From positions 1-64,000 of IMG/VR virus record IMGVR_UViG_3300042398_000969: 64,000 nucleotides of DNA; one strand, given 5' to 3'. This stretch comes from a virus. Position 1 is the stretch's first letter; the number at the start of each line of letters is the position of its first letter. Made by a program: the position numbers and the translations under genes. Below are positions 18,587 to 56,634 of the stretch, piece by piece. The notes below the pieces were generated by a model. The model made no database searches, was not told where the DNA came from, and saw only the letters and a list, made by a program, of their open reading frames with translations.

Positions 18587-19594
18587 CTAAATTATTGTCA
18601 AAAGTGCGTAAGTTATCATGATCGATATCCACACAATTAGTGCTTTCAGGTAGGTCATAAATCCGGTGTGGAAATACTTCTGACCAATCGGTAAACACTT
18701 ATGGGATGGTGAGATCAAATATGCTGAGTATTCCAATGTAAAGAACAGAACAAAATACTGCATACCAAACACACTTGTTAGTAAGCTAACGATACTCGCA
18801 TACTTTGCGGAAGATCCTAACATGAATGATGATAGAAATGATATAACAGAAACCACTAGAATATATTCTGGTTTACTATATTGTTTAATATATGATTCTA
18901 TCACATTATAGTAAGAACCAACAAGGTTACCTAGAATGATTACTAATGCAACGATCCATATCAATTCCCAGTCAATATAACCCATTAGTTTATTCCAGCT
19001 TTTAGAATAATACACCAACCATAGAGTAAACCCTGTAAAGAAACCAAAATAATATTCAGTAAGAAATACACACATTAGTATAGTAACCAAGAACGGTATA
19101 ACCACCATAGTAATGTTTTGCATATTAATTGGTTCGTCTTTAACTTCAATATCAATCTCATCATCATTTAATGATAAAATATAATATGTTACATATAATA
19201 CAGATATTAAAAGCAACGGCCAGATATATGACATGAATTGCATATAAGTTAAACTCAACACAGCCATTGGAATAATAACAGTCTTCTCTAATGGTGACCA
19301 TAGATAATAGTGGTGTGTTGCTAGGTAATCAATGATACCAAACTTCTTACGTTTCTTATTATCAACAGGTGCAATACTGTTTAACATTGATGCCGATAAT
19401 GCAACACGCCCAGGGATAGGTAAGATACCACCAAATAGTGATACCAAAAATACCACCATTCTTTTAGACTTAACTTTTTGTTCAAGTAGTCTGAAGATGT
19501 CCATAAGGTATCCTCTTTCTTTGAGGATACCTGTAACGAACATAATGAATATTAAATAGACAAGGAACTCTTGTCCTTTGATTAGAATTGACAT
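18587..19594 (-). CDS. DUF401-type integral membrane protein
   Basis: A 335-residue polytopic protein with roughly nine or ten hydrophobic segments. The re-entrant-type motif GGILPIPGRVALSASMLN (residues 55-72) and SPSHKCLPIGQ in the C-terminal half are characteristic of DUF401, a family of presumed inner-membrane transporters related to anion permeases. Transported substrate is unknown. It follows the TonB-dependent receptor by 2 bp on the same strand, which is the order expected for a paired outer- and inner-membrane uptake unit. This is an unusual cargo for a phage. Confidence 0.7.
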   Translation of the reverse strand: MSILIKGQEFLVYLIFIMFVTGILKERGYLMDIFRLLEQKVKSKRMVVFLVSLFGGILPIPGRVALSASMLNSIAPVDNKKRKKFGIIDYLATHHYYLWSPLEKTVIIPMAVLSLTYMQFMSYIWPLLLISVLYVTYYILSLNDDEIDIEVKDEPINMQNITMVVIPFLVTILMCVFLTEYYFGFFTGFTLWLVYYSKSWNKLMGYIDWELIWIVALVIILGNLVGSYYNVIESYIKQYSKPEYILVVSVISFLSSFMLGSSAKYASIVSLLTSVFGMQYFVLFFTLEYSAYLISPSHKCLPIGQKYFHTGFMTYLKALIVWISIMITYALLTII

Positions 19595-19596
19595 AA

Positions 19597-21369
19597 TTAA
19601 AAATTATATTTAAGGTTTAAATTAATACTTCTTGTTGGTAAATCAACTGACGATCCCCAGACTCTACTAGCATCATTAAATAAGTTATAAAACAACATTG
19701 TGTATTCTAAATTTTTATACTTTGTGGTGTATCCAATGTTCACCAATCTCACACCTTTATTGTGTAAAAATTGTCGAACATCATTTCTATCTGCAAATGA
19801 TAAAGATTGATCAATTGGTTGATATCTACCTTCCACCCATAGCTTATTATAATTTAGTTTGATGTAGCCAAAATATGGTACTGTTTTATCAACTGGTTCT
19901 GTTGTTCCTGTTAATCTTTTAACACCATAAACATATTCTGCTCTAGCATTCACACCTAGTTTAGTTCCAAACAAACTATCATTAAAATAACCTAACGTTG
20001 CGCCATTTACTGAGACACCACCAATGTTATCGGTCCTAAATACGTTTGTCGATAGTACGGTTACATTAAATGCATCATCTAATTCTTTGAAGTAAACATC
20101 AAAATATAAATTACTTCTTTTATAACCAAATCGATATGTTTGACCTCTCTCTTGTATTAAATCCGGGTTTGGTAATTGTGTGCCTCTACCATTTGTCATT
20201 GCTTGTTTAATCATCAAATAACTTGGTGCGTTTAAGCTATTGTCATAACTTGCAAATAGACCTTTGTATCCAACAATTGCTGAATATTCAAAACCATTAA
20301 ATGGATCAATATCAGTTATTTGAACATTCTTTAATCCTAAACTTGTGTAAACTTTTACTTTACCAATTTCATTAATCCAACGAATACCATGCTTTGTTGT
20401 TTTATAATCATCGTTTGATACCCCACCAACTAAACCATTTTCATATCTGATTTTTTCAATTGTGTTTGTTGAATATATACTAAATGAATGTGGTAATTGA
20501 TATTCAAGATTTGCGGTATATGCTTCTAGACGACTAGCAACTTTTTTTGTCCCATCTAAAATATCTTCCGCACTATTTTGATATGCAAGATTCACGCGTA
20601 GTCTGTTTAAATTCATCTCATGATTAACAAACAAATATCTTTGTAGTTCCCACGTATAAACCGCCGGTCTTTGATAACCAGAACTTCTGAAACCACCGTT
20701 CCATCTATCTGTTCTTTCTAAATCATTTGATTGTGAAAAAATTAAAGTTGTTTTTTGTGTTGAAGACCAGTTGGCTTCAGACACCAATGCTTTTTGGTTG
20801 TAAGCACTGTGTTGAAATGTACTATCAGGAGATATCACATTACCATAGTCAATGTTGTTAAACCCAATACCAAATTTCTTACCCTTATAAGATGCTGATC
20901 GGCTAAATCCATCCGTACCACCCACATAATTTAATCCAACATGTGATGATTGAACACCAACCTTTCTTTCGATTGTTCCACCAATATTACCACCATCTGT
21001 AATAGAAATTAATTTTGTGAATTCTAGTGGAACCCATCCAAAATATTGGTTTGGCCCGGTTCTAAACAAACCGTTATTAACCCTAATACCATTAATTGAT
21101 TGGTCAACTTGATTACCAGTAAACGCCCCAACATATGGACTTAGTTGTCCTGGACTTGTTTCCTGAATCCGTGCAGAGTTCAAGTATACTTTCGGGTTTT
21201 TTATTACTTGTTGCACCTGATAGTTGGTGCCCCCAACAACAACAACTTCTTTCAATTCTATTGAAGCTGTGTCTTTTTGAATTGTACCGCTACTTTGTTG
21301 TCCAAATGACATAGTAGTAGTAAACAATAGTGCTAACATTAGCGATAGCATTGTGATTGTTTTTCTCAT
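19597..21369 (-). CDS. TonB-dependent outer-membrane receptor
   Basis: 590 residues from the ATG at 21367-21369; the longer frame to 21498 runs through the tRNA and is rejected. It has a signal peptide (TMLSLMLALLFTTTMSFGQ), a TonB-box-like segment ELKEVVVVGG (residues 38-47) that binds TonB in the periplasm, a plug region, a beta-barrel rich in alternating aromatic strands, and a terminal Phe (NLKYNF) that marks barrel insertion. The family takes up siderophores, vitamins or glycans. It is shorter than usual (650-1000 residues), and the ligand cannot be inferred. Codon 67 is the rare CGG. Confidence 0.85.
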   Translation of the reverse strand: MRKTITMLSLMLALLFTTTMSFGQQSSGTIQKDTASIELKEVVVVGGTNYQVQQVIKNPKVYLNSARIQETSPGQLSPYVGAFTGNQVDQSINGIRVNNGLFRTGPNQYFGWVPLEFTKLISITDGGNIGGTIERKVGVQSSHVGLNYVGGTDGFSRSASYKGKKFGIGFNNIDYGNVISPDSTFQHSAYNQKALVSEANWSSTQKTTLIFSQSNDLERTDRWNGGFRSSGYQRPAVYTWELQRYLFVNHEMNLNRLRVNLAYQNSAEDILDGTKKVASRLEAYTANLEYQLPHSFSIYSTNTIEKIRYENGLVGGVSNDDYKTTKHGIRWINEIGKVKVYTSLGLKNVQITDIDPFNGFEYSAIVGYKGLFASYDNSLNAPSYLMIKQAMTNGRGTQLPNPDLIQERGQTYRFGYKRSNLYFDVYFKELDDAFNVTVLSTNVFRTDNIGGVSVNGATLGYFNDSLFGTKLGVNARAEYVYGVKRLTGTTEPVDKTVPYFGYIKLNYNKLWVEGRYQPIDQSLSFADRNDVRQFLHNKGVRLVNIGYTTKYKNLEYTMLFYNLFNDASRVWGSSVDLPTRSINLNLKYNF

Positions 21370-21402
21370 TTTGTTTTTGTTTAAGAAAAATTTATAAAAT
21401 TG

Positions 21403-21492
21403 CGGGGAGGAAGAGATTCGGACTCTCGATTGAATGTTAAGTCCAATAGCAGCTTCGGAGGCTGTCGGTTTAAACCACTCACCCACCTCCCC
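21403..21492 (-). tRNA. class II (serine-type) tRNA with anticodon CCG
   Basis: A complete cloverleaf of 90 bases. The 7-bp acceptor stem is perfect (GGGGAGG with CCTCCCC). The D-loop has GG, the anticodon stem is CAGC/GCTG with loop CTCCGAA, the long variable arm has a 6-bp stem (ATTGGA/TTCAAT), and the T-arm is GAGAG/CTCTT with loop TCCGAAT. The discriminator base is G73 and CCA is not encoded. Long variable arm plus G73 is the serine identity pattern, yet the anticodon (21456-21458) is CCG, which reads the arginine codon CGG. Position 55 is C instead of T and the 27-43 pair is A-C, so some decay is possible. Confidence 0.85.
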
Positions 21493-21536: not shown

Positions 21537-22202
21537 CTATCTTTCAATTAAAAATATTCCAAGACCATTCCAAAAGTCAGTGCTATCCTCACCAGATGTG
21601 AAGATTTCTCTATAATGACTAATAAATAAATTATTATCATTTATAAACTTATCAAAAGCACCACCGTTCCAATTCCAATCGTCCATGATAAGAATAGTTT
21701 GATTAGAAAATATGGGTAACATATTAGTTAATGCCACGTATTGATCATGAAATTTTGTTTCACCATCATAAAAAATAATGTCAACATTTGGTAAGGTACT
21801 AAAATCAAATGTTTGATAATCTGTTTTATATACTGAAGTTTTATTAACATTACCATGTTTTTTAACATTCAATAAAAATTCCTCCTGTGGTATTGTTTCA
21901 ATATTATGTTTATAGTAGTTACCTATTTTTTGACTAACACCCTTTGGTGTTAAGTTAGGTGACATGAAGTTGTCAATACCTATTGCGTTAATATTATTAC
22001 TATATATTGCAGAACAAAAAGTGGCCCCTCTAAACACACCAACCTCTAGGTACGTTGTGCCATCAATGTTACAAATATTATTAAGAAAGGCTCTGACTTT
22101 ATTGCTGGTGATTCCATGTATATCTAAAATTTCTTGTGTTAATTTAGATACTTCAAGTTTACCCCATTCAATAGATTCATCTATATGTTTAACTAAGTCC
22201 AT
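21537..22202 (-). CDS. class I SAM-dependent methyltransferase
   Basis: 221 residues from the ATG at 22200-22202, which overlaps the next gene by 14 bp; the ORF's upstream ATG would overlap it by 47 bp. It has the SAM loop TYLEVGVFRGATF, an acidic strand ending IGIDNF, IIFYDGETKF as motif II, and LIMDDWNWNG. The layout resembles the CmcI/TylF-like methyltransferases elsewhere in the window. It forms a translationally coupled trio with the U32-like and radical SAM genes, so the three may act on one substrate. Substrate unknown. Confidence 0.7.
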   Translation of the reverse strand: MDLVKHIDESIEWGKLEVSKLTQEILDIHGITSNKVRAFLNNICNIDGTTYLEVGVFRGATFCSAIYSNNINAIGIDNFMSPNLTPKGVSQKIGNYYKHNIETIPQEEFLLNVKKHGNVNKTSVYKTDYQTFDFSTLPNVDIIFYDGETKFHDQYVALTNMLPIFSNQTILIMDDWNWNGGAFDKFINDNNLFISHYREIFTSGEDSTDFWNGLGIFLIER

Positions 22203-23229
22203 ATGATTTCTTTTTGTGGTTAGCAACGACGTCACAATAGTTACAATCCCAGCACTGAAATTTACATTTCTTTATTTTATTTCTCCATCCTTTTAACTCC
22301 TCGTGTGGAATACCGTCAAGATATATGTGTGATGTTTCAGATAGTATTTCTTTACCCTGTACATATGAATCAACAATTTCCATGGTTTCTTTTAATCGAT
22401 TGAAACTATCTCTACCATGCATTTTAAAAACATCAATGTATTCTAAAAATTCATCAAACTCTTCTTTAAATGGTGGTATTGTTCCTGTCTTGAAAAAGAA
22501 AGCATTAATATCTTTTTCCCATTTATGTTCACAAGTTACTTTGGAGATCTCGTGATGAAAGTATGGTAGTTCGTTGTTTGTTCTTAAGTTATTATATGTG
22601 TAATGTTCATCCATCACTGGGCATCTACCTAAACAACCTTCATTAACTAGTAATGATATTTTAACATATCTACCTTTATCTTCTTGATATTTTAATTGTG
22701 CTCTCTTAATGTTTTTTAACTCTTCAACATCTCTCATTAAAATTCTATCAAGGTTAATGTAATCAAACCCCTGATCCGCATTATACCAAAAGTCTTGTCC
22801 TGTTGCAACCTTTCTTAATATAGTATTTTTAATTTCCATCTCAGGAAAATGTTTCTTAAGCCCCATTGCAACCCAATGACCGTGTGGAATAGTAATGCAC
22901 CTCAAACCCTTTTCATATAAGGGTTTCAGATTATCAACAAACAATTTATAGTTCTGATAATTTGGTGAGATGTTAACATTATTAAATGTTGCACTTATTT
23001 TTATACCTAACGCCTTTTGTATAATCATTGCGTTTTCAAACACAACATCCCTATCCTCTTCTCTGAACACAGCACCCATAGCGTCTTGTGTGAATGGTGG
23101 TGTTCTACATGTAAAATAAATGTCATAGATCCATTCTTTATTTCTTTCTAAGAATGGATAGAATTCATTCATGAACATATCCTCCGTTAACATTGGATTA
23201 AACGGTATTGAAAATATTTTCTTTATCAT
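22189..23229 (-). CDS. peptidase U32-like (RlhA/TrhP-related) protein
   Basis: 346 residues. The segment LLVNEGCLGRCPVMDEHYTY (Cys199, Cys203) matches the cysteine box of the U32 family, and Cys233 in VTCEHKW may be a further cluster ligand, as RlhA/TrhP-type U32 proteins bind a [4Fe-4S] cluster and hydroxylate RNA bases. At the C-terminus is an extra four-cysteine motif CKFQCWDCNYC (322-332), which looks like a second metal or Fe-S site. U32 members also act on peptides, so RNA versus peptide substrate is open. The start overlaps the end of the radical SAM gene upstream by 4 bp. Confidence 0.6.
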   Translation of the reverse strand: MIKKIFSIPFNPMLTEDMFMNEFYPFLERNKEWIYDIYFTCRTPPFTQDAMGAVFREEDRDVVFENAMIIQKALGIKISATFNNVNISPNYQNYKLFVDNLKPLYEKGLRCITIPHGHWVAMGLKKHFPEMEIKNTILRKVATGQDFWYNADQGFDYINLDRILMRDVEELKNIKRAQLKYQEDKGRYVKISLLVNEGCLGRCPVMDEHYTYNNLRTNNELPYFHHEISKVTCEHKWEKDINAFFFKTGTIPPFKEEFDEFLEYIDVFKMHGRDSFNRLKETMEIVDSYVQGKEILSETSHIYLDGIPHEELKGWRNKIKKCKFQCWDCNYCDVVANHKKKSYGLS

Positions 23230-24227
23230 TTGCTACCTTCCATACAACCTCCACAAATTCCATTACATTCTGTTTTATAAAAAACGCAATCTAAACAACC
23301 TTGTGGGATTGAATAATTTTTATGATTATCGATATAAAGTTTATCAAACTCTTCTCTTAAACCTAATATACCATTTTTACCTGATATTTCCAAAACATTA
23401 TTGATTTTTACTTTATCTTCTAATGGGTAACAATGGATTGAGCTGCCGTCCGGAAAGATATCCAATGGCATAAATCCACATATTGTTTCATATTCGGGTA
23501 TCTTAAATGTTGCGAAGTTTAATGAATTTTCTAACACCGCACCTTTTGTTTTACCTTCCCAGAGACATGGTGGTACCTGACAGTCCGATGTGATCTTTAT
23601 TTGATTGTATAGACCAAATTTAAGTATCTTAGTCATCTCATTCCCCATCTCTTTATTGTTAATGAGATAGGTTCCAGTTAGATCTAACCCCAACCTTATT
23701 GCGTTTATATTACCATCTAATTCATGGTACAACCATTTAACATATTCATAGAAATTTCTATCCTTCCAATCACTTGACATTGTTAATGCTAAGTATAATC
23801 TTGGATTCGTTTCAAATCCCCATGTGTTTGCATAAGCTTTGTATATTTCCAAATAGTTTTTTTTAAAAATAACCATTCTGTTTTTCTCATTGAGCTCCGC
23901 AGCATTAGGAAATACCCATCTAATATTTTTGATGTTCGCAATTATATACTCTCTGGTAGTTTTACCAAATAGAAAATTACTAACAAGATTTACTTTAAAT
24001 CCTTTAGAAAATATATGATCTAATATTCCAGTAAAATTTGAATGTTGTGTTGGTTCGCCACCAAGTATTGTGATTTCTTCGCTAGGGTTGTTTAGACGAT
24101 AATGGCCGATAATTTTATCGACCATTTCTATACTCATTTCCCCTAAGGTATGTTTTAATCTTGCGTCTTCTTTTGTGAAACAAAATGAACAACCTTTAGC
24201 ACACGTTCCGTTTATTGCTAAATTCAT
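23226..24227 (-). CDS. radical SAM protein with C-terminal SPASM-like cysteines
   Basis: 333 residues. The radical SAM cluster motif CxxxCxxC is CAKGCSFC at Cys9, Cys13 and Cys16, followed by ITILGGEPTQ (GGEP at 56-59), the SAM-binding motif. The C-terminal third is cysteine-rich (CGFMPLDIFPDG, then GCLDCVFYKTECNGICGGC), as in SPASM domains with auxiliary [4Fe-4S] clusters. Such enzymes make peptide crosslinks, epimers or thioethers, or anaerobic sulfatase-type changes. The core is at the N-terminus, unlike the seven radical SAM proteins further right. It forms one unit with the U32-like gene. Confidence 0.85.
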   Translation of the reverse strand: MNLAINGTCAKGCSFCFTKEDARLKHTLGEMSIEMVDKIIGHYRLNNPSEEITILGGEPTQHSNFTGILDHIFSKGFKVNLVSNFLFGKTTREYIIANIKNIRWVFPNAAELNEKNRMVIFKKNYLEIYKAYANTWGFETNPRLYLALTMSSDWKDRNFYEYVKWLYHELDGNINAIRLGLDLTGTYLINNKEMGNEMTKILKFGLYNQIKITSDCQVPPCLWEGKTKGAVLENSLNFATFKIPEYETICGFMPLDIFPDGSSIHCYPLEDKVKINNVLEISGKNGILGLREEFDKLYIDNHKNYSIPQGCLDCVFYKTECNGICGGCMEGSK

Positions 24228-25792: not shown

Positions 25793-26902
25793 TTATCTCC
25801 AACCACAGTGCCCTGATGATGTTCCATTATTTACTCTTGGGGCCAAACCTGTTACAGCATTGGATCCGCTATCAGTTGCATAATAAAATAACCAACTACT
25901 ATTATTTTGTCCTGTACCATCATAGTTACCTAGCATGTATTGCCAGTCCTGTCCCATTGCAAAGTTTTCTTCTCCACAATTTGGGTGAGGCTTTGCAACG
26001 TTACCAAGATTTGTATCTGTAGAGTTACTCCATCTTCTTAAGTTGTAACCCCCATTGTACGAACCTTCATTACCACAATAACCTTTACCCACCTTAGAAC
26101 TAATTCCTTTTTGTTGTGCGTGTGCTCCCCATTGAGTTGATGATGATGGTGTTTCATTCGAAAAGTTAAATTTAATACCGGCACTTGACGTCCAAGCATA
26201 ACCAAAACTTTCGTCAAAAAACGCACCACCTCCGTCAGAACCATTAATAGATGTTACCCCAAATCCACTCACATAACTTTCATTTGATAAATTAAATTTT
26301 TCAATTGAAGTAGATCCGCCTGAAATTAAATAAGCGAACTCGGTTTCTTTTTGCATGGTAGCGACGTCACTTCTAGCTATACCAGTATTAAATTTTGTTT
26401 GATGTGCGTAGTTTGTATCATTAAACATGTTGATGGCAGATGTTCTGGTTCCATGAACACTATCAGGACCTTTCCATGCCCCATCATCATTTACGGACCA
26501 AATAAATAATATTGTTTTATTACATGCGCCAGATGTATAAGAAACTGGATAATCCAACAACTCACCAATGTGTGTTGTTTGATGTGTTGAGTTAGTTGTT
26601 TTATGTACATTTCTCCATGGAGATGAATCTTTATATCCTCCAGCTAAGTATGAATATGCTAAAACTTGTCTATATCTAAATGCAATTGGAATTGTTTCTT
26701 GTGCCGCAATTCTCTCCCATCCGTTATCAATATTTGATACGCCGGTATATAACATTAAAAAGCTACCACTAGTGGATTCTTCCAAATATAAAGAACCAGA
26801 TAATGGTGAACCAGGTCTATTTGCTCTGGTACCTTTAGGTGGTCTATTAACCACTCTATCTGATGTTAAACTTCCACTAATTTCTAAATTCTCGTATATC
26901 AT
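25793..26902 (-). CDS. virion protein, tandem paralogue 1
   Basis: 369 residues, the first of three adjacent paralogues. The N-terminus has NLEISGSLTSDR, then RANRPGSPLSGSLYLEES. The middle carries SYLAGGYKDSSPWRNVHKT, and the C-terminal part has GISSKVGKGYCGNEGSYNGG and ends SSGHCGWR. The set is beta-rich with no signal peptide and no catalytic motif, matching virion structural or fibre-type proteins of marine myoviruses. It differs from the other two in WQYMLGNYDG and in lacking their TVNPSGLAPGVNG, and looks the most diverged of the three. Role in host binding is an inference from position by the fibre. Confidence 0.7.
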   Translation of the reverse strand: MIYENLEISGSLTSDRVVNRPPKGTRANRPGSPLSGSLYLEESTSGSFLMLYTGVSNIDNGWERIAAQETIPIAFRYRQVLAYSYLAGGYKDSSPWRNVHKTTNSTHQTTHIGELLDYPVSYTSGACNKTILFIWSVNDDGAWKGPDSVHGTRTSAINMFNDTNYAHQTKFNTGIARSDVATMQKETEFAYLISGGSTSIEKFNLSNESYVSGFGVTSINGSDGGGAFFDESFGYAWTSSAGIKFNFSNETPSSSTQWGAHAQQKGISSKVGKGYCGNEGSYNGGYNLRRWSNSTDTNLGNVAKPHPNCGEENFAMGQDWQYMLGNYDGTGQNNSSWLFYYATDSGSNAVTGLAPRVNNGTSSGHCGWR

Positions 26903-26917
26903 ATTATATAATAATTT

Positions 26918-28024
26918 TTATCCTCTCCATCCACAATGTCCTGAGGATGTCCCACCATTAACACCTGGTGCCAATCCGCTAGGATTAACTGTCCCTGTAT
27001 CTGTTGAATAACTAAATTTCCAACTTGTATTATTTTGAAGCCCATCATAATTCCCCAACATGTATTGATGATCTTGCCCCATTGTAAAATTTTCTTCTCC
27101 ACAGTTGCCATGTGGTTTAGCAACGTTACCAATATTAGTATCGTTAGCGTTGCTCCATCTTCTTAAATTGTATCCACCATTATAACTTCCTTCATTTCCC
27201 GCATACCCTTTACCAACCTTAGAACTAATACCTTTTTGTTGTGAGTGGTTTCCCCACATTCCACTTGAGCTGAATGTTTCTGTTGCAAAACTCATTTTAA
27301 CACCTTCACTACTTGTCCACCCATAACCAAAGTTTTCATCAGAAAAAGCTGATCCACCATCGTTACCTGTAATCGTTGTTAAATTAAATCCGGTTGCTAT
27401 TGTTTCCGTACTCATATCAAATTTTTCAACCAACGAATTACCACCACTAAAAATATAGGCAGTTTCAGTTTCTTTATGCATAGTACCACAATCTGATCTT
27501 ATGGCAGTTATATTAAACTTGGTATTATGTGTATATTTTGTTTCATTAGACATATTAACCGCAGCGGTTTGGGTTCCATGTATATCTGATGCTGATTTCC
27601 ATACATTATCCGTGTTAACCGACCAGATAAATAAAATGTACCTACTACAAGCCCCTGAAGTATATGATGCTGGGTAATCCAATAACTCGCCAATATGTGT
27701 TGTTTGATCTGTGGCATTTATTGTTCTGTGGACATTCTTCCATGGTGAACTATCTTTATATCCACCAGCCAAATATGAATAATTAATAATTTGTCTAAAT
27801 TTAAATCCAACGTTAGCGTTTACTTGGGATGATACTCTAACCCAACCGCTATCATTGTTACTCACACCAGCATAAACCATCAAAAAGCTACCACTCGTTG
27901 CTTGTTCCAAATATAAAGAACCCGTTTGGGGGCTACTTGGTCTATTGGCACGAGATCCCATTGGGGGTTTTGAAACTCCCTGTGCTTTTAATGATCCGCT
28001 AATTTCAATATTTTCGTGTATCAT
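26918..28024 (-). CDS. virion protein, tandem paralogue 2
   Basis: 368 residues. It shares the whole layout of its two neighbours: ENIEISGSLKAQG, RANRPSSPQTGSLYLEQ, YSYLAGGYKDSSPWKNVHRT and NLRRWSNANDTNIGNVAKPHGNC, ending TSSGHCGWRG. Its C-terminal third is closest to paralogue 3 (TVNPSGLAPGVNG is identical). It lies 15 bp from paralogue 1 and 18 bp from paralogue 3, on one transcript. The three copies could assemble as a heteromer or be alternative versions. Confidence 0.7.
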   Translation of the reverse strand: MIHENIEISGSLKAQGVSKPPMGSRANRPSSPQTGSLYLEQATSGSFLMVYAGVSNNDSGWVRVSSQVNANVGFKFRQIINYSYLAGGYKDSSPWKNVHRTINATDQTTHIGELLDYPASYTSGACSRYILFIWSVNTDNVWKSASDIHGTQTAAVNMSNETKYTHNTKFNITAIRSDCGTMHKETETAYIFSGGNSLVEKFDMSTETIATGFNLTTITGNDGGSAFSDENFGYGWTSSEGVKMSFATETFSSSGMWGNHSQQKGISSKVGKGYAGNEGSYNGGYNLRRWSNANDTNIGNVAKPHGNCGEENFTMGQDHQYMLGNYDGLQNNTSWKFSYSTDTGTVNPSGLAPGVNGGTSSGHCGWRG

Positions 28025-28042
28025 ATTTTATAAATACAAATT

Positions 28043-29182
28043 TTATGCTCTCCAGCCACAATGTCCAGAAGATGTTCCACCATTAACACCGGGAGCTAAT
28101 CCACTGGGATTAACAGTCCCCGTATCTGTTGTATAACTAAACCTCCAACTAGTATTTACTTGTGCACCGTCATAACATCCTAACATATATTGATGATCTT
28201 GTCCCATTGTGAAATTCTCTTCACCACAGTTACCGTGAGGTTTTGAAACATTCCCAATATTTGTTTCCGTGAAAACGTTCCATCTTCTTAAGTTATATCC
28301 TCCATTGTAATTTCCTTCATTTCCAGCATACCCTTTACCAACCTTAGAACTAATTCCTTTTTGTTGTCCACTGGCTCCCCATTGTTGATTATTTGTAAAT
28401 GTATCGTTTGCAAAAAATAATTTTGTACCACTTTGTTGTGTCCAACCATACCCATAATTCTCATCAGAAAATCCTGATGCCCCTGAAGGTCCACTACCTG
28501 TAATTGACGAGGTATTTGTTATGTATGGTGAAGCTACTTGGTAATAAACACTATACATTGTTTCATTTGTTAAATTAAATTTTTCAACTGTTGCAACCGA
28601 AGCACCAAATATCCAAGCAAATTCTGTTTCTTGATGCAAAGTACCACAGTCATCTCTAGCATTTGCTAAATCCCATTTTGATTGATGTGCGTATGCTGTT
28701 TCATTAACCATGTGTACACCACTTGTCCATGTTGAATGAACGGTGTTATCTCCTTTAAATGCCCCATCGGTATTTGTTGACCAAAGAAATAAAATACTTT
28801 TACTACACGCTCCTGAAGTATATGATGCTGGGTAATCTAAAAGTTCACCTAAATGAACCGTTTGATCTGTTGAGTTTGTTGTTCTATGAACATTTCTCCA
28901 TGGCGATGCATTTTTATAACCACCCGCTAAATAAGAAAAATTAATTACTTGTCTATATTTGAACCCAGTTCTATCTGTGTTTTGCGAACCGACAGGTTCC
29001 CACCCATCGTCATAATTTGATGATGCTGTATATGTTACAACAAAACTACCACTAGGAGATTCTTCTAAATATAATGAACCAATATCAGGACTGGTTGGTC
29101 TATTTGCTCTTGGCCCTCTAGGTATAATATATTGTCCACTAACATTTAAGGAACCGCTTACTTCAACATTTTCTCTTAGCAT
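28043..29182 (-). CDS. virion protein, tandem paralogue 3
   Basis: 379 residues. It shares RANRPTSPDIGSLYLEES, FSYLAGGYKNASPWRNVHRT and GISSKVGKGYAGNEGNYNGG with the other copies, ending SSGHCGWRA. An insertion around residues 215-245 (YYQVASPYITNTSSITGSG) makes it the longest. It lies 17 bp from the large fibre gene. An expansion like this beside a fibre is often linked to adhesin or decoration proteins, but the function is not known. Confidence 0.7.
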   Translation of the reverse strand: MLRENVEVSGSLNVSGQYIIPRGPRANRPTSPDIGSLYLEESPSGSFVVTYTASSNYDDGWEPVGSQNTDRTGFKYRQVINFSYLAGGYKNASPWRNVHRTTNSTDQTVHLGELLDYPASYTSGACSKSILFLWSTNTDGAFKGDNTVHSTWTSGVHMVNETAYAHQSKWDLANARDDCGTLHQETEFAWIFGASVATVEKFNLTNETMYSVYYQVASPYITNTSSITGSGPSGASGFSDENYGYGWTQQSGTKLFFANDTFTNNQQWGASGQQKGISSKVGKGYAGNEGNYNGGYNLRRWNVFTETNIGNVSKPHGNCGEENFTMGQDHQYMLGCYDGAQVNTSWRFSYTTDTGTVNPSGLAPGVNGGTSSGHCGWRA

Positions 29183-48915: not shown

Positions 48916-50235
48916 TTATAAATGTTTTGTTAATTCTGGTGGAAACACCATTATTGATTTATTTCTTCTAATATCATATTGTAAATAAAACTTTTTAAAA
49001 TCATTCCAAAGTTTAACTGGATCTTGATCTGCGTTTTGATGTGGTCTTTCAACGTCAGTTAAATAATCAACCAATCTTTCAATATCTGTTTGTTCAAATA
49101 AATGTAATTTATGTTTATTCTTAATATACCATTCTTCTAAATGATCTCTTCTTTCTTTTCTAACTTCTTTTGGTAAACTAAGTGATGATTGGAAAGCCGG
49201 GAATCTTAAGATATTAAGACTTAGATAAGGATAACCACCAAACCTTTCTTTTAATTTGATCATATCATCCATGAAGTCTGTAATAGTAAATAAACATAAC
49301 GCATTGATTGTCATCATGATATAAGTTTTAGACCAATTACCTTCTTTCATAAATCTAGTTAAATTGTTTAACCAGGTTTTATATACCACACCATCTCTGA
49401 TATAATCAGCTTGTTCGCCAGTCGCTTCCATGCTAGTATATAAATGGAAATCTTTTAATCCTTTTGACTTCTGAATTATCTTATCAATGATTTCTGGTTT
49501 ACCCATTAAATTAGAGTTAATTGCAAATCTCATATCCAAGTTCTCTTCAATAAGATAATCAATTATCTTCCAAGTTTGTGGGCTCATTGTTGGTTCACCG
49601 CCTGTAATTCTAAGTTCTTCTAATGAATCTTTTAATCCGTTGTGCCACCATTCCCAGAAAGCCTTTATATAAGGGTTATTTTCCTCACTATCATATAAAT
49701 CTTCCTTACTACCGTCTGAACTAAAGATCGTCGCCCCATAGGTCTGCAAATCGCGATACGGACCATTCTTTATAATATCTTTGGCCCAAGTTGTACTGTA
49801 ATCTGCGTTACAATAAGAACAGGCTAAGTTACATGCTCTACTAAAACTTATCTCCAGTGTTTTTAGATTAACATTATCACTAGTTGGTGCTGTTGATATT
49901 CTATCAATATCTTCCTGTTTGTATATGATTGATTTGTGAACCCTGTCACTAATATGATCTTTACCCATATCTTCAATCTTCCAACAATATTCACATTCAG
50001 GTGGTCGAACACCATTTAACATCATCTCACGCATTTTCTTCTTGTGTGATGTGTTGTGTATTGCTGTGAAATCATTAGCTAACTCATCTAGTGGTATTGT
50101 TTGTTTCGGTGGATGGTGACAAGATGTTGTACCACCACTATTAAGCCATATGCTGGCGTTTAACCATTTAGCTGCGCAAAATGATGGACTAATAACATCC
50201 AATACCGATTTTCTATATTTTAAATGTTCATTCAT
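48916..50235 (-). CDS. N-terminal-twitch radical SAM protein, group A copy 1
   Basis: 439 residues. An N-terminal half-SPASM (twitch-like) region with Cys20, Cys39 and PPECEYCWKIED (Cys81, Cys84) precedes the radical SAM core, the reverse of the usual order. The core has CNLACSYC (Cys135, Cys139, Cys142) and the SAM motif RITGGEPT (GGEP 212-215). Its closest relative is the gene at 55258. Substrate unknown; the family is reported in phages without function. It lies 1 bp before the dioxygenase gene. Confidence 0.85.
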   Translation of the reverse strand: MNEHLKYRKSVLDVISPSFCAAKWLNASIWLNSGGTTSCHHPPKQTIPLDELANDFTAIHNTSHKKKMREMMLNGVRPPECEYCWKIEDMGKDHISDRVHKSIIYKQEDIDRISTAPTSDNVNLKTLEISFSRACNLACSYCNADYSTTWAKDIIKNGPYRDLQTYGATIFSSDGSKEDLYDSEENNPYIKAFWEWWHNGLKDSLEELRITGGEPTMSPQTWKIIDYLIEENLDMRFAINSNLMGKPEIIDKIIQKSKGLKDFHLYTSMEATGEQADYIRDGVVYKTWLNNLTRFMKEGNWSKTYIMMTINALCLFTITDFMDDMIKLKERFGGYPYLSLNILRFPAFQSSLSLPKEVRKERRDHLEEWYIKNKHKLHLFEQTDIERLVDYLTDVERPHQNADQDPVKLWNDFKKFYLQYDIRRNKSIMVFPPELTKHL

Positions 50236-51234
50236 CTAATTAAAATTATGTACAACGTTTTTATATTTTTTTAGTTTCTCAACTTCAACTTTGAAATCGG
50301 AATTTAACTCATGGGATTCATCCCAAACTTTGATTTCATTATACTTCGCATCTGAAAATGTTCCCCAGTTAGCAACTTTGTAAAAGAAGATCAAAACCTT
50401 TTTATTTTGGAAGATATTGTTAACCATGTCACAGAAGATATCCATCTCTTTGTAGTTTTCCTTTTGTGCAACAAAAGATAATATAACCTGTTCAACGGTT
50501 GAGATTGTATTAATGAACTTTAAGTTTTCAACTAACGTTTCCCACTTACCACCAAGTCTAACTTTCTCATAAGTTTCCTTTGTAGCGGCATCAATACTAA
50601 TCTCACAGCTTTTTACATATGGATGAATGTTACGCATCATCTCCCAAACTTTTGGAGTCCAAAGAATGCCATTGGTATGAAGGATAATGTTTTTTAGTTT
50701 AGGATATTTTTCAGAATTTATATTCATCAAGTATTCACGCATTGGAATACTATAGAATGGATCACCAGTACCACTAGTAAAAATCTCTTCTAGCTCATCA
50801 CTATATGCTTCTTCTATCTTTTGAAATATTAATCTACTTTTCTTTGTTCGTTCTTCAGTATTGGGAACAATATCCAATCTACAACTAGGGCACCTTAAAT
50901 TACACGCAACATCAAAACATAACTTAATTCGTTTTGGTTTATTGTAAATTTGATTTTTAAATTCAACTATAGGTTTGATTGGTCCAGTAACTGCACCAGT
51001 TTTAACTAATGTGTTTAACGATGGACAAAATTCTGTGCTACAGTTTTTAAACGACCCATCTAACATTGACTCTCTAATTTCAACAGCTGGTTCACCAAAC
51101 CAATTATCTAAAAAGTTCTCACTAATTTGAATGTTGGTTGTATTCCAATATGGACAGCACAGAGTTTGTTTATCTGTGTGTAATTCTGTGTAGGTGAAAG
51201 GTAACTCACAGTAATAATTTTTTAAATCAACCAT
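50236..51234 (-). CDS. N-terminal-twitch radical SAM protein, group B copy 1
   Basis: 332 residues. Core motif CNLRCPSC (Cys111, Cys115, Cys118), an ELEEIFTSGTGDPFY segment in place of GGEP, and an N-terminal cysteine set (Cys9, Cys26, Cys27, Cys65, Cys70). The GTGDPF segment recurs as STGDPFYSK in its neighbour. That substitution is unusual for the SAM-binding loop and may mark a subfamily. Paired head-to-tail with the next gene. Confidence 0.8.
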   Translation of the reverse strand: MVDLKNYYCELPFTYTELHTDKQTLCCPYWNTTNIQISENFLDNWFGEPAVEIRESMLDGSFKNCSTEFCPSLNTLVKTGAVTGPIKPIVEFKNQIYNKPKRIKLCFDVACNLRCPSCRLDIVPNTEERTKKSRLIFQKIEEAYSDELEEIFTSGTGDPFYSIPMREYLMNINSEKYPKLKNIILHTNGILWTPKVWEMMRNIHPYVKSCEISIDAATKETYEKVRLGGKWETLVENLKFINTISTVEQVILSFVAQKENYKEMDIFCDMVNNIFQNKKVLIFFYKVANWGTFSDAKYNEIKVWDESHELNSDFKVEVEKLKKYKNVVHNFN

Positions 51235-52247
51235 TATGATAAATTTTCGTTTACGTGTTCAATACCTTTTATTTTTTCTATCTCATCTAGGAATAAATTA
51301 TATTCTGGGTGTGTTGGTTCGTAGATACATTGTTCATCCCAATACTCTTTAGTATGGAATGGGAACTTGATGATCTTGAATAATTGTATTCTAGCTTTAT
51401 CACCAAAATATCCTTTAATCATTTTAACAAAATCAACCATCTCTTTGTAGTTGTCTTTTTGAACAACCATTGAGCATATGATAAACTCAAAATTTGGAAT
51501 AACTTCTTTTGAAAGATATTCTAAGTTTGATAATAGAACGTCCCACTTACCATTTAACCTAACCTTCTCGTATGTTTCTTTTGTTGCGGCATCTATTGAT
51601 ATGTGTGCGCTCTTAACATATTGATGAACATTTGGCATTCTTTCCCACATATCCTTATTCCAAAGAGTACCATTTGTATGTAAGTGTATCTTTTTAAGAT
51701 TTGGATATTTCTCAGGCTTGAAGTTAATCAAGTAGTCTCTATATGATTTTGAATAGAACGGATCACCAGTACTGGTAATGTGTAACTCCTCAACTTCATC
51801 ACTATAAGCCTCCTCAATCTTTAATACCTTGTCATCTATCTCCAATATTTTTGTTGGATCTGCATTGATTAAAGATGGTCGACATGATGGGCATTTAAGG
51901 TTGCAACTAAAATCAAAGCAGAAGTTAATCCATTTTGGTTTGTTCCACTCCCTACTCATGAAATCTTCTCTAGTTAATATGTTATGATTTGGTTTATCAT
52001 CTCTAATAACACTATGTAAGTGTGAACATTGTTCTTTATCACAGTATTTGTAAGAACCATCAAGAATGGATTCTCTAACCATCTTAGCTTTATCTCCAAA
52101 CCAATCTTTTTCAAAATCTCCGGTCTCATGAACGTTAACACCCATTAAGTTAGGACAACAAAGATATTGTCTATCATTGTCATAAACTTCTGTGTACATG
52201 AACGGCCAAGTACAAACATATTTCTTTAAATCAACTTCTTTATTCAT
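51234..52247 (-). CDS. N-terminal-twitch radical SAM protein, group B copy 2
   Basis: 337 residues. Core motif CNLKCPSC (Cys115, Cys119, Cys122) and N-terminal Cys12, Cys30, Cys31, Cys69 and Cys74. HITSTGDPFYSK replaces GGEP, as in copy 1. The two genes overlap by one base and share VKSAHISIDAATKETYEKVRL almost exactly, so they are recent paralogues. Both would act in the cytoplasm. Confidence 0.8.
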   Translation of the reverse strand: MNKEVDLKKYVCTWPFMYTEVYDNDRQYLCCPNLMGVNVHETGDFEKDWFGDKAKMVRESILDGSYKYCDKEQCSHLHSVIRDDKPNHNILTREDFMSREWNKPKWINFCFDFSCNLKCPSCRPSLINADPTKILEIDDKVLKIEEAYSDEVEELHITSTGDPFYSKSYRDYLINFKPEKYPNLKKIHLHTNGTLWNKDMWERMPNVHQYVKSAHISIDAATKETYEKVRLNGKWDVLLSNLEYLSKEVIPNFEFIICSMVVQKDNYKEMVDFVKMIKGYFGDKARIQLFKIIKFPFHTKEYWDEQCIYEPTHPEYNLFLDEIEKIKGIEHVNENLS

Positions 52248-53481
52248 AATATTTCGATATTTCTGGTATCATCACAGAAATGTTTTGGTTTCTTTTTATA
52301 TCCAAAGCGTTAGTGAATTTTTTAAATAAAACTATTTGATATTCATTTCTCTCTAACGACAGTTGGTTCTTTATTGCTATTAATCTTTCTATCACCCAAT
52401 CAACTTGGAACACATCCGGATACTCTCTACTTTCGATATCACCCAGCGTCTCATCGATCTTAACTATAAGATCATTCTTCAAATTGTCTGGCATGTTCCT
52501 AATATTAAGATAAGAGGGATTTTGCAATATGTGTAGTATAGGTAAAACTGATTTCGATAAGAAGAAGTCAATTAGATCAAACATACAAAACACATTATAT
52601 ATTTGAACGGTGAAATTGGCATTCATCTTTATGTTATCATGATCGACCATGAACTTATATGTCATATCAATCTTATTTTTGGTTATATCCCATACCATCG
52701 GGTATCTAATGTACTCATAAACAGGGCCTAACCCATCAATTGAGAAATCTATGGTTACACGTTTAAACTTACTTAGTTTTTCTAAGGTTTCTTCTTTCAT
52801 CTTTGTTAGATTCGTATTCAATCTAAACTCAATGTTTTTAGCATAATCACCTTCAATCAAGTAATCTAATAATTCATAGAAAGATTTGTTAATCAAAGGC
52901 TCTCCACCAGAAAATCTAATGATTTTAATTGTACTAGCATTATCTCTGATCCCTTGTATGTAACTTGTTAAATCATCGGTGATTTCAAAGTCAACAATTG
53001 GTAAAATTTCACCTAGAGTACTGTCCAATGATATCAACTCCTTATACTCTTTATTAATAAGGTCAGAATCCTGTGGTTGACACATTCTACATTTTAAATT
53101 ACAAAGATTACCAACACGTAGCTCAATTGCTGTTGGGAATTTATCTAGTTGGCCACCATTTTCTTCCGCTACTTTAACACTATCCAAATAGTCTTCATTT
53201 TCCTCGTATATTTCAACCAGATCTTTTCTTAATGATGTACCACCATTTCTTTCAGATCGATAGCATTCTTCACAACCTTTAATTTCCTCACCATTGATGG
53301 CTTTAATCCTAGATTGTTTCATGTAATCGCTATTCCAGAATGTGTCTAGGCTTTCATTAACACCGATACCAACAACCTTATTATCTTTGATTGGTACATG
53401 TAAACAACAAGTTTTATAAACCCCAAAAGAGTCATTCATGACATTGTTAAAAAAGTTAGGACAAATCGTTTTGTTATCCAT
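52240..53481 (-). CDS. N-terminal-twitch radical SAM protein, group C copy 1
   Basis: 413 residues. CNLKCRMC (Cys127, Cys131, Cys134), SGGEPLIN as the GGEP motif, and N-terminal Cys25/Cys26 and EIKGCEECYRSE (Cys70, Cys73) as the twitch cysteines. Resembles the other group C genes at 56631 and 57824. It overlaps group B copy 2 by 8 bp and the glycosyltransferase gene by one base, so the whole block is translationally linked. Confidence 0.85.
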   Translation of the reverse strand: MDNKTICPNFFNNVMNDSFGVYKTCCLHVPIKDNKVVGIGVNESLDTFWNSDYMKQSRIKAINGEEIKGCEECYRSERNGGTSLRKDLVEIYEENEDYLDSVKVAEENGGQLDKFPTAIELRVGNLCNLKCRMCQPQDSDLINKEYKELISLDSTLGEILPIVDFEITDDLTSYIQGIRDNASTIKIIRFSGGEPLINKSFYELLDYLIEGDYAKNIEFRLNTNLTKMKEETLEKLSKFKRVTIDFSIDGLGPVYEYIRYPMVWDITKNKIDMTYKFMVDHDNIKMNANFTVQIYNVFCMFDLIDFFLSKSVLPILHILQNPSYLNIRNMPDNLKNDLIVKIDETLGDIESREYPDVFQVDWVIERLIAIKNQLSLERNEYQIVLFKKFTNALDIKRNQNISVMIPEISKYYE

Positions 53482-54644
53482 TACAATAATTTTTTAATAA
53501 AATTGTTACCGTCTTCCCATCTTTCTTTTTCTGGGAATATTTCACAAAGTTTTTCATAATAATAATTTCCTAAACCATTGAGATACAGTTTCTTTTGTGA
53601 TTCTAAAATCTCCGTTTCAGTATTACCATATTTTATCTTTTCAACCAACACGTTTAAATGGTCATAACCATTATGTTGTATTGTATGTATATCTTTCATT
53701 CTATCTAGCATGATATTGTTGATATAATCATCAATTTTATGTTCCGCTAAGTGTAAATACCCACACAGATTATGGTACCTTAAGTATTTAAGATCAGTAC
53801 CAATACTTATAACATCTTTTGGTGTGTCTATAAACCTACCTATCTCCATTATCTTCTTCACATTCGAATTTACTGTGAACTTATTGTCATCACCCGGTTT
53901 TGGTATAATAGATAATGATGGATAATCACTAAATAAAAATGTATGTGCTTCAAACATTGTCCAGTTCTTCAAATACCCCTCGGTTATTTTATTATAGATT
54001 GGGAAAAATAATAATTGTTCCACAATCTGAGGTGACCTGAATGTATCAGTGTCTAATAACTCACGATTTGTAAAATAAAAATCAACCAAATAGTCATAAG
54101 TCTTTTTGATGTTCTCCAAATCATAACCACCAAAAATTGACATGTTTGGTATGAAGTCCATTGGCATTGTTTTAAAGAAATCCAATTCAAAACAATCTTT
54201 TAACTTTATGAACAACTCGTAGTAGTACTCGTAAAATGAAATAAACCTAGAATTCTCAATTCTATGTTCAAATCGTGGGTACAACATCACATCAGGGAAA
54301 GCAAAGATTAACTTTTTATTCTCTGGGATCTGAACCCTTTCGAAAAGGAAAGTATCAGTATCGATGTGTAGGAATGGTGTGTTTTGGTGTCTGTATACCT
54401 CCATTTTGGGTATAGCAAAGTTTGGACCATCATAGTTTAGTTTATCCAACAAGTCTGTGTTAATTCTATTGTATGGAAGATCTAATGGTTTTATGATCTC
54501 ATAAATGTCACTTGTGGTATATAAATGAACATTGTCATATAATCTTTTTGCACATAGCAGTGACATGATCATATGGAAGATCGTTCTTTTGTTAGTATAG
54601 TCTGGTTTTGAACTAACGTTAGCCCATGTGTGGATTATGTTCAT
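53481..54644 (-). CDS. GT-A-like glycosyltransferase between radical SAM genes
   Basis: 387 residues. The metal motif HIDTDTFLF (near 93-101) is a DxD of GT-A transferases acting on capsule- or surface-type glycans, followed by IPNMSIFGGYDLENI. It is flanked on one side by a radical SAM gene and on the other by a lectin-like gene. Sugar and acceptor unknown. Overlaps the lectin-like gene by 4 bp. Confidence 0.65.
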   Translation of the reverse strand: MNIIHTWANVSSKPDYTNKRTIFHMIMSLLCAKRLYDNVHLYTTSDIYEIIKPLDLPYNRINTDLLDKLNYDGPNFAIPKMEVYRHQNTPFLHIDTDTFLFERVQIPENKKLIFAFPDVMLYPRFEHRIENSRFISFYEYYYELFIKLKDCFELDFFKTMPMDFIPNMSIFGGYDLENIKKTYDYLVDFYFTNRELLDTDTFRSPQIVEQLLFFPIYNKITEGYLKNWTMFEAHTFLFSDYPSLSIIPKPGDDNKFTVNSNVKKIMEIGRFIDTPKDVISIGTDLKYLRYHNLCGYLHLAEHKIDDYINNIMLDRMKDIHTIQHNGYDHLNVLVEKIKYGNTETEILESQKKLYLNGLGNYYYEKLCEIFPEKERWEDGNNFIKKLL

Positions 54645-55261
54645 AAATAAAATCTATTCAGTAGGTTGAAGTGCGGTGACCTATCCCAAACTTTTTGTTC
54701 TGTTTTCCTGTTGAAATCATAACAACCAAGTATATTAATATCTATTTCACTTTCACTTTCCAACGCTCTTATTTCATCAATATAACACATTTTTTTCGCA
54801 ATAACTAATCCGGTTAAATCATACTCAATATTGTCAGCATGACCACCACCAAAATTATATGTGCTGGTTGGTAAAAATATCATATTACCCATAAAACTAT
54901 GTACCAATGAGTCATTTATGTATATGAAATTTTCATTATCTCTTCCACTTAATAAAATCTCAAAAGAGGTTTCACCTTTCATTTCTGCATAAAACTTAAG
55001 AACACCCTTTTCTTTATCTTCTTGATCATCAACGTGTCTAAAGGTGAACTGTAATTGATCATCACATATTTGTATGCCCAGTTCATCATTACCTTTCCAC
55101 ACAATATTAGAAACAGAATCTTGTATACCACCAATTAAATCAAATTTGATATAGAAGGTATATTCGTTAGAATTGTCAAATGCTAATATATTACCGCTAT
55201 TCATACCATATGATATGATATCCGGATTTAAGCACCAGGGTTCCTTATATTTTATTATCAT
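54641..55261 (-). CDS. stand-alone LamG/concanavalin-like lectin domain protein
   Basis: 206 residues. Alternating strands and turns (NEYTFYIKFDLIGG, LQFTFRHVDD, NFIYINDSLVHSF, GCYDFNRKTEQKVWD) give the jelly-roll pattern of LamG/ConA-like lectins; similar elements are inserted in the two GT7-like genes further right (ENYFRGTIDRFAYFDD there). No signal peptide. It may bind the sugar made by the neighbours or be a virion component. Assignment by fold pattern, not by motif. Confidence 0.5.
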   Translation of the reverse strand: MIIKYKEPWCLNPDIISYGMNSGNILAFDNSNEYTFYIKFDLIGGIQDSVSNIVWKGNDELGIQICDDQLQFTFRHVDDQEDKEKGVLKFYAEMKGETSFEILLSGRDNENFIYINDSLVHSFMGNMIFLPTSTYNFGGGHADNIEYDLTGLVIAKKMCYIDEIRALESESEIDINILGCYDFNRKTEQKVWDRSPHFNLLNRFYL

Positions 55262-56634
55262 ATTAAATGTGTTTTATAAAAATCTTCTAACTCTGGAAAA
55301 GTTTTGACAAAATCAGTTCCTCTTCTTTGATCGATTTGTTTAATGTAATGTGAAAACGTTTTTCTTTGTTTAAATAATTCATTATCATCTATTGGTGATA
55401 TTGCCCAATCATACGTTCGTTTAAGTTTCTGTATTTCCATATCAGAACATCCCATATGTGTGTGATCATACATAAGAGTAGCGTTGAATAGTGCCAATTT
55501 AGATTGCTCTAAAATGTTATGTTTCATTTGATGTGGTAATATTTGAATACTCATGAAATTAGGGTAACGCAAATATGATGTATCAAATATCGCTGGTTGT
55601 ATCCAACATCTTTGTTCATTCTGATGTACTCTTTTCAACTCCAGAACATCTAAAATAAATTTATCAAATGAGAAGACGCTTAAAGCGTTATATGTAACCA
55701 TGAAATCAATAGTCACTTGTGGTAACTCTGTCAATATTTTATTAACGTTATTCATGAATCTATTATAATCCATACCATTTCTAAGATATTCCGCTTGTTT
55801 ACCGTGGGCATCACATGATGTGAATATTACTAGTTCTCTAATTCTACCTTCACCCAATATGCGTTTACATTTCTCAATTAAATTATCAATTAGTTTGTCA
55901 GGTACACCTAGATTGGTATTGATGGCTAGATTTAAATTTCTATTAGGTTCTTTTTGTTCTAATATGTAATCTAAAACACCCCAAGTATCTTTTGATAATA
56001 AGGGTTCTCCACCAGTAATTCTAAATGTGTGTAGATCTCTATATAGTTCCGGCCACCACTCCCAAAATGCATCAACATATGGATTATGTTCTGAATTTAA
56101 ATAAGGTGTGGTTTCTTCATTAAAATGATTAAAACCATTTTCATATGGTCCGTATTTTTTAAGTTCTTCAACCCATGAACTTGAGAATTGTGGGCCACAG
56201 TACATACATTTGAAGTTACAAGTATTGCTAAATGCTACCTCAACATATTTTGGATTAAAATCCGCTCTCCAATTCAAATCTTTAATTTCATTATAATATT
56301 CCCAAGACCATGGTTCAGATGATTTAAAAACCCTATCAGAATATCTATCCGAATTGTCTTCTATTTTCCAACAATATTCACATTCCGATGGTCTACCGCC
56401 ATTTAACATTTCACGTCTTTTCTCTTTTTTAAATCTCGTGTTATGTAATGCGGATGGATTGTTTTTAATTTCAATCTCAGGTATCTTATGAAGACTTGGG
56501 TGGTGACATGAGTGGTTGTGCCCAGTATGTAATTGTAACGTTACTTGTGTCCATTTAGCTAGACACATACCATTACCAATCCCATTGAGTGATTCACTTA
56601 CTTTTTCATAATGTTTATTAATGTCTATACTCAT
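55258..56634 (-). CDS. N-terminal-twitch radical SAM protein, group A copy 2
   Basis: 458 residues. CNFKCMYC (Cys139, Cys143, Cys146), RITGGEPLLS and the N-terminal Cys24, Cys43, Cys85 and Cys88 (RPSECEYCWKIED). It shares with the copy at 48916 the exact string CEYCWKIED, HHP-rich N-terminus and DRVxKS. So group A has two copies about 5 kb apart, each followed by group C enzymes. Overlaps group C copy 2 by 4 bp. Confidence 0.85.
   Translation of the reverse strand: MSIDINKHYEKVSESLNGIGNGMCLAKWTQVTLQLHTGHNHSCHHPSLHKIPEIEIKNNPSALHNTRFKKEKRREMLNGGRPSECEYCWKIEDNSDRYSDRVFKSSEPWSWEYYNEIKDLNWRADFNPKYVEVAFSNTCNFKCMYCGPQFSSSWVEELKKYGPYENGFNHFNEETTPYLNSEHNPYVDAFWEWWPELYRDLHTFRITGGEPLLSKDTWGVLDYILEQKEPNRNLNLAINTNLGVPDKLIDNLIEKCKRILGEGRIRELVIFTSCDAHGKQAEYLRNGMDYNRFMNNVNKILTELPQVTIDFMVTYNALSVFSFDKFILDVLELKRVHQNEQRCWIQPAIFDTSYLRYPNFMSIQILPHQMKHNILEQSKLALFNATLMYDHTHMGCSDMEIQKLKRTYDWAISPIDDNELFKQRKTFSHYIKQIDQRRGTDFVKTFPELEDFYKTHLI

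What the first reader, a model, noticed from the sequence alone, without database searches (positions are those of the whole stretch)
18587..21369. Phage TonB-dependent receptor paired with a DUF401 transporter
The receptor has signal peptide, TonB-box-like segment, barrel-type sequence and terminal Phe, and its 3' end is 2 bp from a polytopic DUF401-type protein. An outer- plus inner-membrane uptake unit is rare in phages. It might alter nutrient uptake, block superinfection by taking a receptor site, or be a recently captured host operon. It is short (590 residues) for the family.
Basis: partly seen in the sequence, partly recalled or inferred. Interest (0 to 1): 0.75.

Follow-up and report, generated by a model that had tools for sequence, protein, structure and literature searches.

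The report
Phage import pair with swappable gate
Many viruses of bacteria carry a matched pair of membrane proteins that looks like an import line across both membranes of the host cell, and they swap the outer gate between two unrelated barrel types while keeping the inner carrier, which suggests that these viruses remodel what their host takes up during infection.

Summary
The pair is real: a 590-aa TonB-dependent receptor (TBDR, 19597-21369, minus) ends 2 bp before a DUF401 carrier (18587-19594). Pfam misses the receptor, but it matches the plug and barrel of an Emticicia TBDR; its plug is present but trimmed. Eight other contigs hold the pair, ruling out a chimera. "Rare" and "captured host operon" are wrong: DUF401 of this subfamily occurs in about 450 phage loci. 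In about 100 places it pairs with a different outer-membrane protein, predicted to be a 12-stranded barrel, in either gene order and once fused in one ORF. The TBDR is a cassette that replaces this barrel behind the same signal peptide and TonB-box-like leader. Two phages 98.9-99.96% identical on both sides differ only there; at least four exchanges are needed on the DUF401 tree. All parts are under purifying selection. Best reading: a TonB-driven outer gate feeding an inner-membrane secondary carrier, substrate unknown. The 12-stranded barrels carry a conserved TonB-box-like N-terminus; if functional, they would be TonB-dependent transporters outside the 22-stranded class. Import and TonB use are inferred, not shown.

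The parts
19597..21369 (-). TonB-dependent receptor (TBDR), 590 aa, outer gate of the unit
   Evidence: homology to Emticicia TBDR WP_305953328
21298..21369 (-). Signal peptide, residues 1-24, shared with the alternative 12-stranded barrel of related phages
   Evidence: cleavage site read by eye
21229..21258 (-). TonB-box-like segment ELKEVVVVGG, residues 38-47; left border of the exchanged module lies here (21229-21273)
   Evidence: alignment on BtuB/CirA/FepA boxes; homology break
20950..21228 (-). Trimmed plug domain, about residues 48-140
   Evidence: 39% identity to Emticicia plug at residues 63-134; alignment; limits approximate
19600..20949 (-). Beta-barrel part of the TBDR, about residues 141-590, terminal Phe
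   Evidence: 25% identity over 360-588 to Emticicia barrel; no structure model available
18587..19594 (-). DUF401 carrier, 335 aa, inner-membrane partner; the shared sequence resumes at its start (19588-19594)
   Evidence: PF04165 1.1e-9, phrog_14035 8.6e-84, alignment A3, junction
21402..21492 (-). tRNA gene, anticodon CCG, long variable arm, directly upstream of the TBDR; the only tRNA found in the record
   Evidence: ARAGORN, Rfam RF00005 E=7e-9
21537..23229 (-). phrog_1458 as two ORFs (22189-23229 N-terminal half; 21537-22205 methyltransferase half), recurrent neighbour of DUF401 in other phages

Best explanation
This is the TBDR version of a widespread phage import unit that has not been named. 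(1) An outer-membrane gate with a TonB-box-like N-terminus is exported by an ordinary signal peptide and inserted as a beta-barrel; in most phages it is a 12-stranded barrel, in the window's group a TBDR with a trimmed plug. (2) Host TonB pulls on the N-terminal box and opens the gate, letting a solute into the periplasm. (3) The DUF401 protein, a secondary carrier related to the citrate/ion transporter superfamily, moves it into the cytoplasm, where it serves phage production. The gate is an exchangeable cassette: recombination in the conserved leader and at the DUF401 start replaces plug plus barrel and keeps the carrier. Shown: pairing, recurrence, exchange, shared leader, purifying selection, TBDR homology, predicted 12-stranded fold of the alternative gate. 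Inferred: TonB energisation, direction (import), benefit to the phage. Unknown: substrate.
For: TBDR homology over plug and barrel. DUF401 membership, and polar blocks HHYYxWSPxEK, GSSxK, SPxHKC kept from cyanophages to cellular copies. The usual partner is a confident 12-stranded barrel resembling FapF, NanC, COG4313 and KdgM channels. Barrel and DUF401 stay together in both gene orders and in one fusion ORF; exceptions are contig ends. Exchange: flanks 98.9% and 99.96% identical, only the gate module differs; TBDR 98% identical in backbones that are 69-86% identical; at least 4 changes on the DUF401 tree, single clade rejected. dN/dS 0.02-0.12. TonB-box-like motif in all 45 intact distinct barrels.
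Against: No substrate, no expression and no direct proof of transport. The match to E. coli TonB boxes beats shuffles in only 6 of 11 barrels, and not in the window's own TBDR (p=0.14). The trimmed plug could be a gate stuck open or shut. Cyanophage DUF401 genes have no outer-membrane partner beside them, so the carrier can work without this gate. Tail-fibre-like genes lie nearby, as would suit receptor masking.
Confidence: 0.6

Rival explanations
1. Superinfection exclusion or TonB decoy: the outer-membrane protein masks a receptor or ties up TonB, so that competing phages cannot enter; the gate is swapped in an arms race and DUF401 is an accessory.
For: Repeated exchange of the surface-exposed part only; tail-fibre-like genes close to DUF401 in several phages; T5 is a precedent for exclusion acting on a TonB-dependent receptor (PMC9586334).
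Against: A conserved carrier stays adjacent through inversion of order and fusion. L032 and L059 share about 8 kb upstream at 98.9% identity, which includes adhesin-like genes, yet differ in the gate, so the gate is not matched to those adhesins. dN/dS of the gates is low, 0.05-0.12, with no sign of diversifying selection within a gate type.
Confidence: 0.2
2. Export line: DUF401 and the gate move out a product of the neighbouring tailoring enzymes (phrog_1458, 2OG-oxygenase, halogenase), in the manner of a secretion channel.
For: phrog_1458 with 2OG-oxygenases or a tryptophan halogenase beside DUF401 in many phages; best fold match of the usual gate is the secretion channel FapF.
Against: TonB boxes and TBDRs serve import as a rule (established knowledge); NanC and KdgM, also matched, are uptake channels; a TBDR would be an odd replacement for a secretion channel.
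Confidence: 0.12
3. Recent capture of an intact host TBDR-DUF401 operon, or an assembly chimera.
For: The nearest relative of the TBDR is cellular (Emticicia); the leader looks Bacteroidota-like.
Against: The pair is in nine contigs with phage flanks; DUF401 is spread in phages, and only 2 cellular contigs of the subfamily were found, neither beside a TBDR; the TBDR family has already diverged 20% within phages.
Confidence: 0.03

Closest known systems
TonB-dependent transporters of bacteria (BtuB, CirA, FepA; Emticicia WP_305953328)
   Same: Signal peptide, TonB-box-like segment, plug with the NGIRVNN...GPNQY block, C-terminal barrel homology, terminal Phe
   Different: Plug lacks about 22 residues after the box, the Arg of the (I/V)RG motif and the LYGSxA block; below Pfam detection; encoded by a phage and paired with DUF401
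SusC-like TBDR of marine megaphage Mar_Mega_1 (PMC9723777)
   Same: A TBDR gene in a phage, proposed to raise uptake
   Different: No inner-membrane partner and no exchange of gates described there
DUF401 / phrog_14035 (PF04165), also in cyanophages S-CAM4, S-H25 and MbCM1
   Same: The same carrier family, 38-39% identical, same conserved polar blocks
   Different: No outer-membrane partner beside the cyanophage copies
12-stranded outer-membrane channels (FapF, COG4313/Phenol_MetA_deg, NanC, KdgM)
   Same: Predicted fold of the usual gate partner (b12)
   Different: About 11-14% identity; no TonB box reported for the solved ones as far as I know; b12 carries one after its signal peptide
T5 superinfection exclusion at the TonB-dependent receptor FhuA (PMC9586334)
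   Same: A phage protein acting at the outer membrane around a TonB-dependent system
   Different: T5 Llp is a small lipoprotein without a carrier partner (own knowledge)

Membership tests
TonB-dependent receptor | Plug domain (PF07715-like) | tested here: met
   39% identity of residues 63-134 to the plug of a bona fide TBDR; trimmed, and no direct Pfam hit
TonB-dependent receptor | 22-stranded barrel (PF00593-like) | tested here: inconclusive
   C-terminal 230 residues match the Emticicia barrel; strand number not modelled, structure prediction failed
TonB-dependent receptor | TonB box after the signal peptide | tested here: inconclusive
   ELKEVVVVGG aligns with BtuB/CirA/FepA boxes; shuffle p=0.14
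TonB-dependent receptor | TonB- and pmf-dependent uptake | not testable with these tools
   needs an experiment
DUF401 (PF04165) | Score above the curated cut-off | tested here: met
   38.6 bits against 24
TIGR00529 equivalog | Score above the curated cut-off | tested here: not met
   52.2 bits against 378.4
Phenol_MetA_deg (PF13557), for the usual partner b12 | Score above the curated cut-off | tested here: not met
   8 of 25 members match at E<=0.1, best 3.6e-4; P0005 scores 20.7 bits against 22; the fold is similar
TonB-dependent transporter, for b12 | 22-stranded barrel with plug | tested here: not met
   12 strands in a model with pLDDT 79.9
TonB-dependent transporter, for b12 | TonB box | tested here: inconclusive
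   motif in all 45 intact distinct sequences, 43 by a pattern written after seeing them; PWM shuffle test significant in 6 of 11
Superinfection-exclusion outer-membrane protein | Blocks a receptor of a competing phage | not testable with these tools
   host and its phages unknown

The most novel reading that the evidence does not exclude
[quoted passage not shown] TBDR and mini-barrel are interchangeable modules behind one TonB box.
Probability: 0.4. Interest if true: 0.9.

Novelty: new variant of a known kind. Interest (0 to 1): 0.72.

Why it matters
Here a matched outer- and inner-membrane pair is spread over many phages, keeps its adjacency through a change of gene order and a fusion, and trades its outer gate between two unrelated barrel types in otherwise near-identical genomes. 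That natural swap makes it directly testable what the gate does for the phage. If the 12-stranded barrel uses TonB, the view that TonB energises only 22-stranded plugged barrels would need revision.

Tried and rejected
Direct Pfam, PHROGs, NCBIfam and PDB sequence searches for the TBDR gave no hit. Structure of the TBDR failed for lack of alignment depth. A genome scan for cellular TBDR kin by back-translated peptides found none. The DUF401 subfamily in the groups of its two cellular carriers: only the two known genomes, so no substrate clue beyond a neighbouring MFS gene. The 12-stranded barrel in isolated phages and plasmids: none. Reassignment of CGG to Ser by the odd tRNA: not supported, homologous sites are mostly Arg. 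Chimera: rejected by recurrence. Literature: no paper on a phage DUF401 carrier and none found on TonB-boxed 12-stranded barrels.

Full report
OBSERVATION. The two ORFs are as described. The window lies in a 169-kb virus record of a contractile-tailed phage with tail sheath, baseplate wedge, UvsX-like recombinase and DnaB-like helicase. The likely start of the receptor is ATG 21369; the longer ORF from TTG 21498 translates a tRNA gene. There is no Shine-Dalgarno-like sequence before this ATG and the signal peptide ends SFGQ, both Bacteroidota habits (own knowledge); that the host is a Bacteroidota bacterium is an inference.

IS IT A TBDR? No library hits it, but tblastn of plasmids finds one protein, an annotated TonB-dependent receptor of Emticicia oligotrophica, which scores 2.1e-22 for Plug and 2.6e-37 for the barrel. 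Pairwise, residues 63-134 align with its plug at 39% and 360-588 with its barrel at 25%. Alignment with BtuB, CirA and FepA puts ELKEVVVVGG on their TonB boxes and shows a plug trimmed in two places. The size is not abnormal: BtuB has 614 residues. The structure model failed.

NOT A CHIMERA, AND NOT RARE. The TBDR-DUF401 pair is in the window and in eight other contigs; one more contig is cut inside the TBDR (L074). This DUF401 is in 64 viral loci found with the single sequence, 453 places with a profile search, and nine cyanophage records. Only two cellular contigs of the subfamily turned up in a scan of 84,980 genomes.

THE USUAL PARTNER. In the other loci the ORF before DUF401 is a protein of about 290-330 aa that shares the signal peptide and TonB-box-like leader with the TBDR (roughly 44-65% over about 46 residues) but nothing after it. 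Its model is good (pLDDT 79.9 from 25 sequences): 12 strands, terminal Phe. The best solved matches are FapF, NanC, COG4313 and KdgM. I call it b12. The viral collection has 101 places with b12; in those read, DUF401 is beside or near it unless the contig ends (L222, L258 and L268 end within about 115 bp). The order is b12-DUF401 with a 13-bp overlap in most; DUF401-b12 in L262, L267, L269, L271 and L278, whose signal peptides look proteobacterial; 2.3 kb apart in L234 and L235; and fused in L248. In the fusion the last DUF401 helix runs into TTEAKA|DVIEEVIVEGKEYPQF, so one helix may serve as membrane anchor and as signal peptide. This is a single contig and could be an assembly error.

EXCHANGE. 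L032 (TBDR) and L059 (b12) are 98.9% identical over 8.4 kb on one side and 99.96% over 11 kb on the other; only the module between the TonB-box region and the DUF401 start codon differs. Conversely the TBDR part is 98% identical between the window and L007 or L011, whose flanks are 69-86% and DUF401 87% identical. With L002 and L003 both TBDR and DUF401 are 94-97% identical against flanks of 72-88%, so the pair can also move together. On the DUF401 tree the TBDR/b12 label needs at least four changes, forced by strongly supported branches; a single clade of TBDR carriers is rejected (p-AU 2e-38; 2e-4 without L032). dN/dS is 0.05-0.12 for the TBDR, 0.02-0.05 for DUF401 and 0.09-0.10 for b12, so all are kept as working proteins.

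TONB BOX ON b12. All 45 distinct b12 proteins with an intact N-terminus have a motif like LxE[VI]x[VI]xA just after the signal peptide or after a variable linker; in the proteobacterial-type ones it lies within the first few residues of the mature protein, as in BtuB. 43 fit a pattern that I wrote after seeing them. Scored against five E. coli boxes, 6 of 11 representatives beat shuffles at p<0.05 and 5 do not. Conservation at a fixed place is the stronger evidence. A 2024 review states that the 12-stranded Tsx lacks a TonB box and is not in the TBDT class (PMC11658791).

MECHANISM. The most likely reading is a two-step import line: a TonB-opened gate, then the DUF401 carrier. DUF401 keeps its polar blocks (HHYYxWSPxEK, GSSxK, SPxHKC) from cyanophages to cells, which speaks for a working carrier. 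The substrate is unknown. A lead: phrog_1458 (in the window 22189-23229 and 21537-22205) adjoins DUF401 in many phages, with a 2OG-oxygenase or a tryptophan halogenase between or beside them; the carrier may serve that pathway, in either direction. Superinfection exclusion is the main rival.

NOVELTY. A phage TBDR as such is known (SusC of Mar_Mega_1, PMC9723777). The unit with DUF401, the exchange of gates and the TonB-boxed 12-stranded partner were not found in the literature searched, which holds open-access papers only.

Noticed in passing
window 21402-21492 (-); also in about two dozen related loci: The only tRNA found in the 169-kb record has a long variable arm, G at the discriminator position and a D-arm like tRNA-Ser, but anticodon CCG (Arg). 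CGG is among the two rarest of the twelve Arg and Ser codons (16 of 52,628 codons) and homologous sites are mostly Arg (61 of 112 sites, Ser 4), so there is no sign of recoding; how it is charged is unclear.
   Followed up: partly
window 21537-23229; L153, L154, L159, L160, L163, L167, L234, L278; cyanophages S-H25 and MbCM1: phrog_1458 (unknown N-terminal half plus methyltransferase) recurs beside DUF401, often with a 2OG-Fe(II) oxygenase or tryptophan halogenase: a possible tailoring pathway with its own carrier.
   Followed up: partly
L248:5149-6771: DUF401 and the 12-stranded barrel are fused in one 540-aa ORF; the last DUF401 helix plus AKA|D looks like a signal peptide, suggesting a polyprotein split by signal peptidase. 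Single contig; no second copy found.
   Followed up: partly
L198, L199, L200, L203 (contig ends): Several contigs end inside the shared leader of the outer-membrane gene, as expected if alternative gate modules coexist in the sampled population.
   Followed up: no
window 23226-24227 and 48916-59017: A radical-SAM domain is confirmed at 23226-24227; a run of further ORFs at 48916-59017 has cysteine motifs that look like radical-SAM proteins, among glycosyltransferase-like ORFs, unusual in number for a phage (read by eye).
   Followed up: no
window 25793-29182: Three tandem paralogous ORFs of 368-379 aa with nearly the same C-terminus (NGGTSSGHCGWR), probably alternative adhesins.
   Followed up: no
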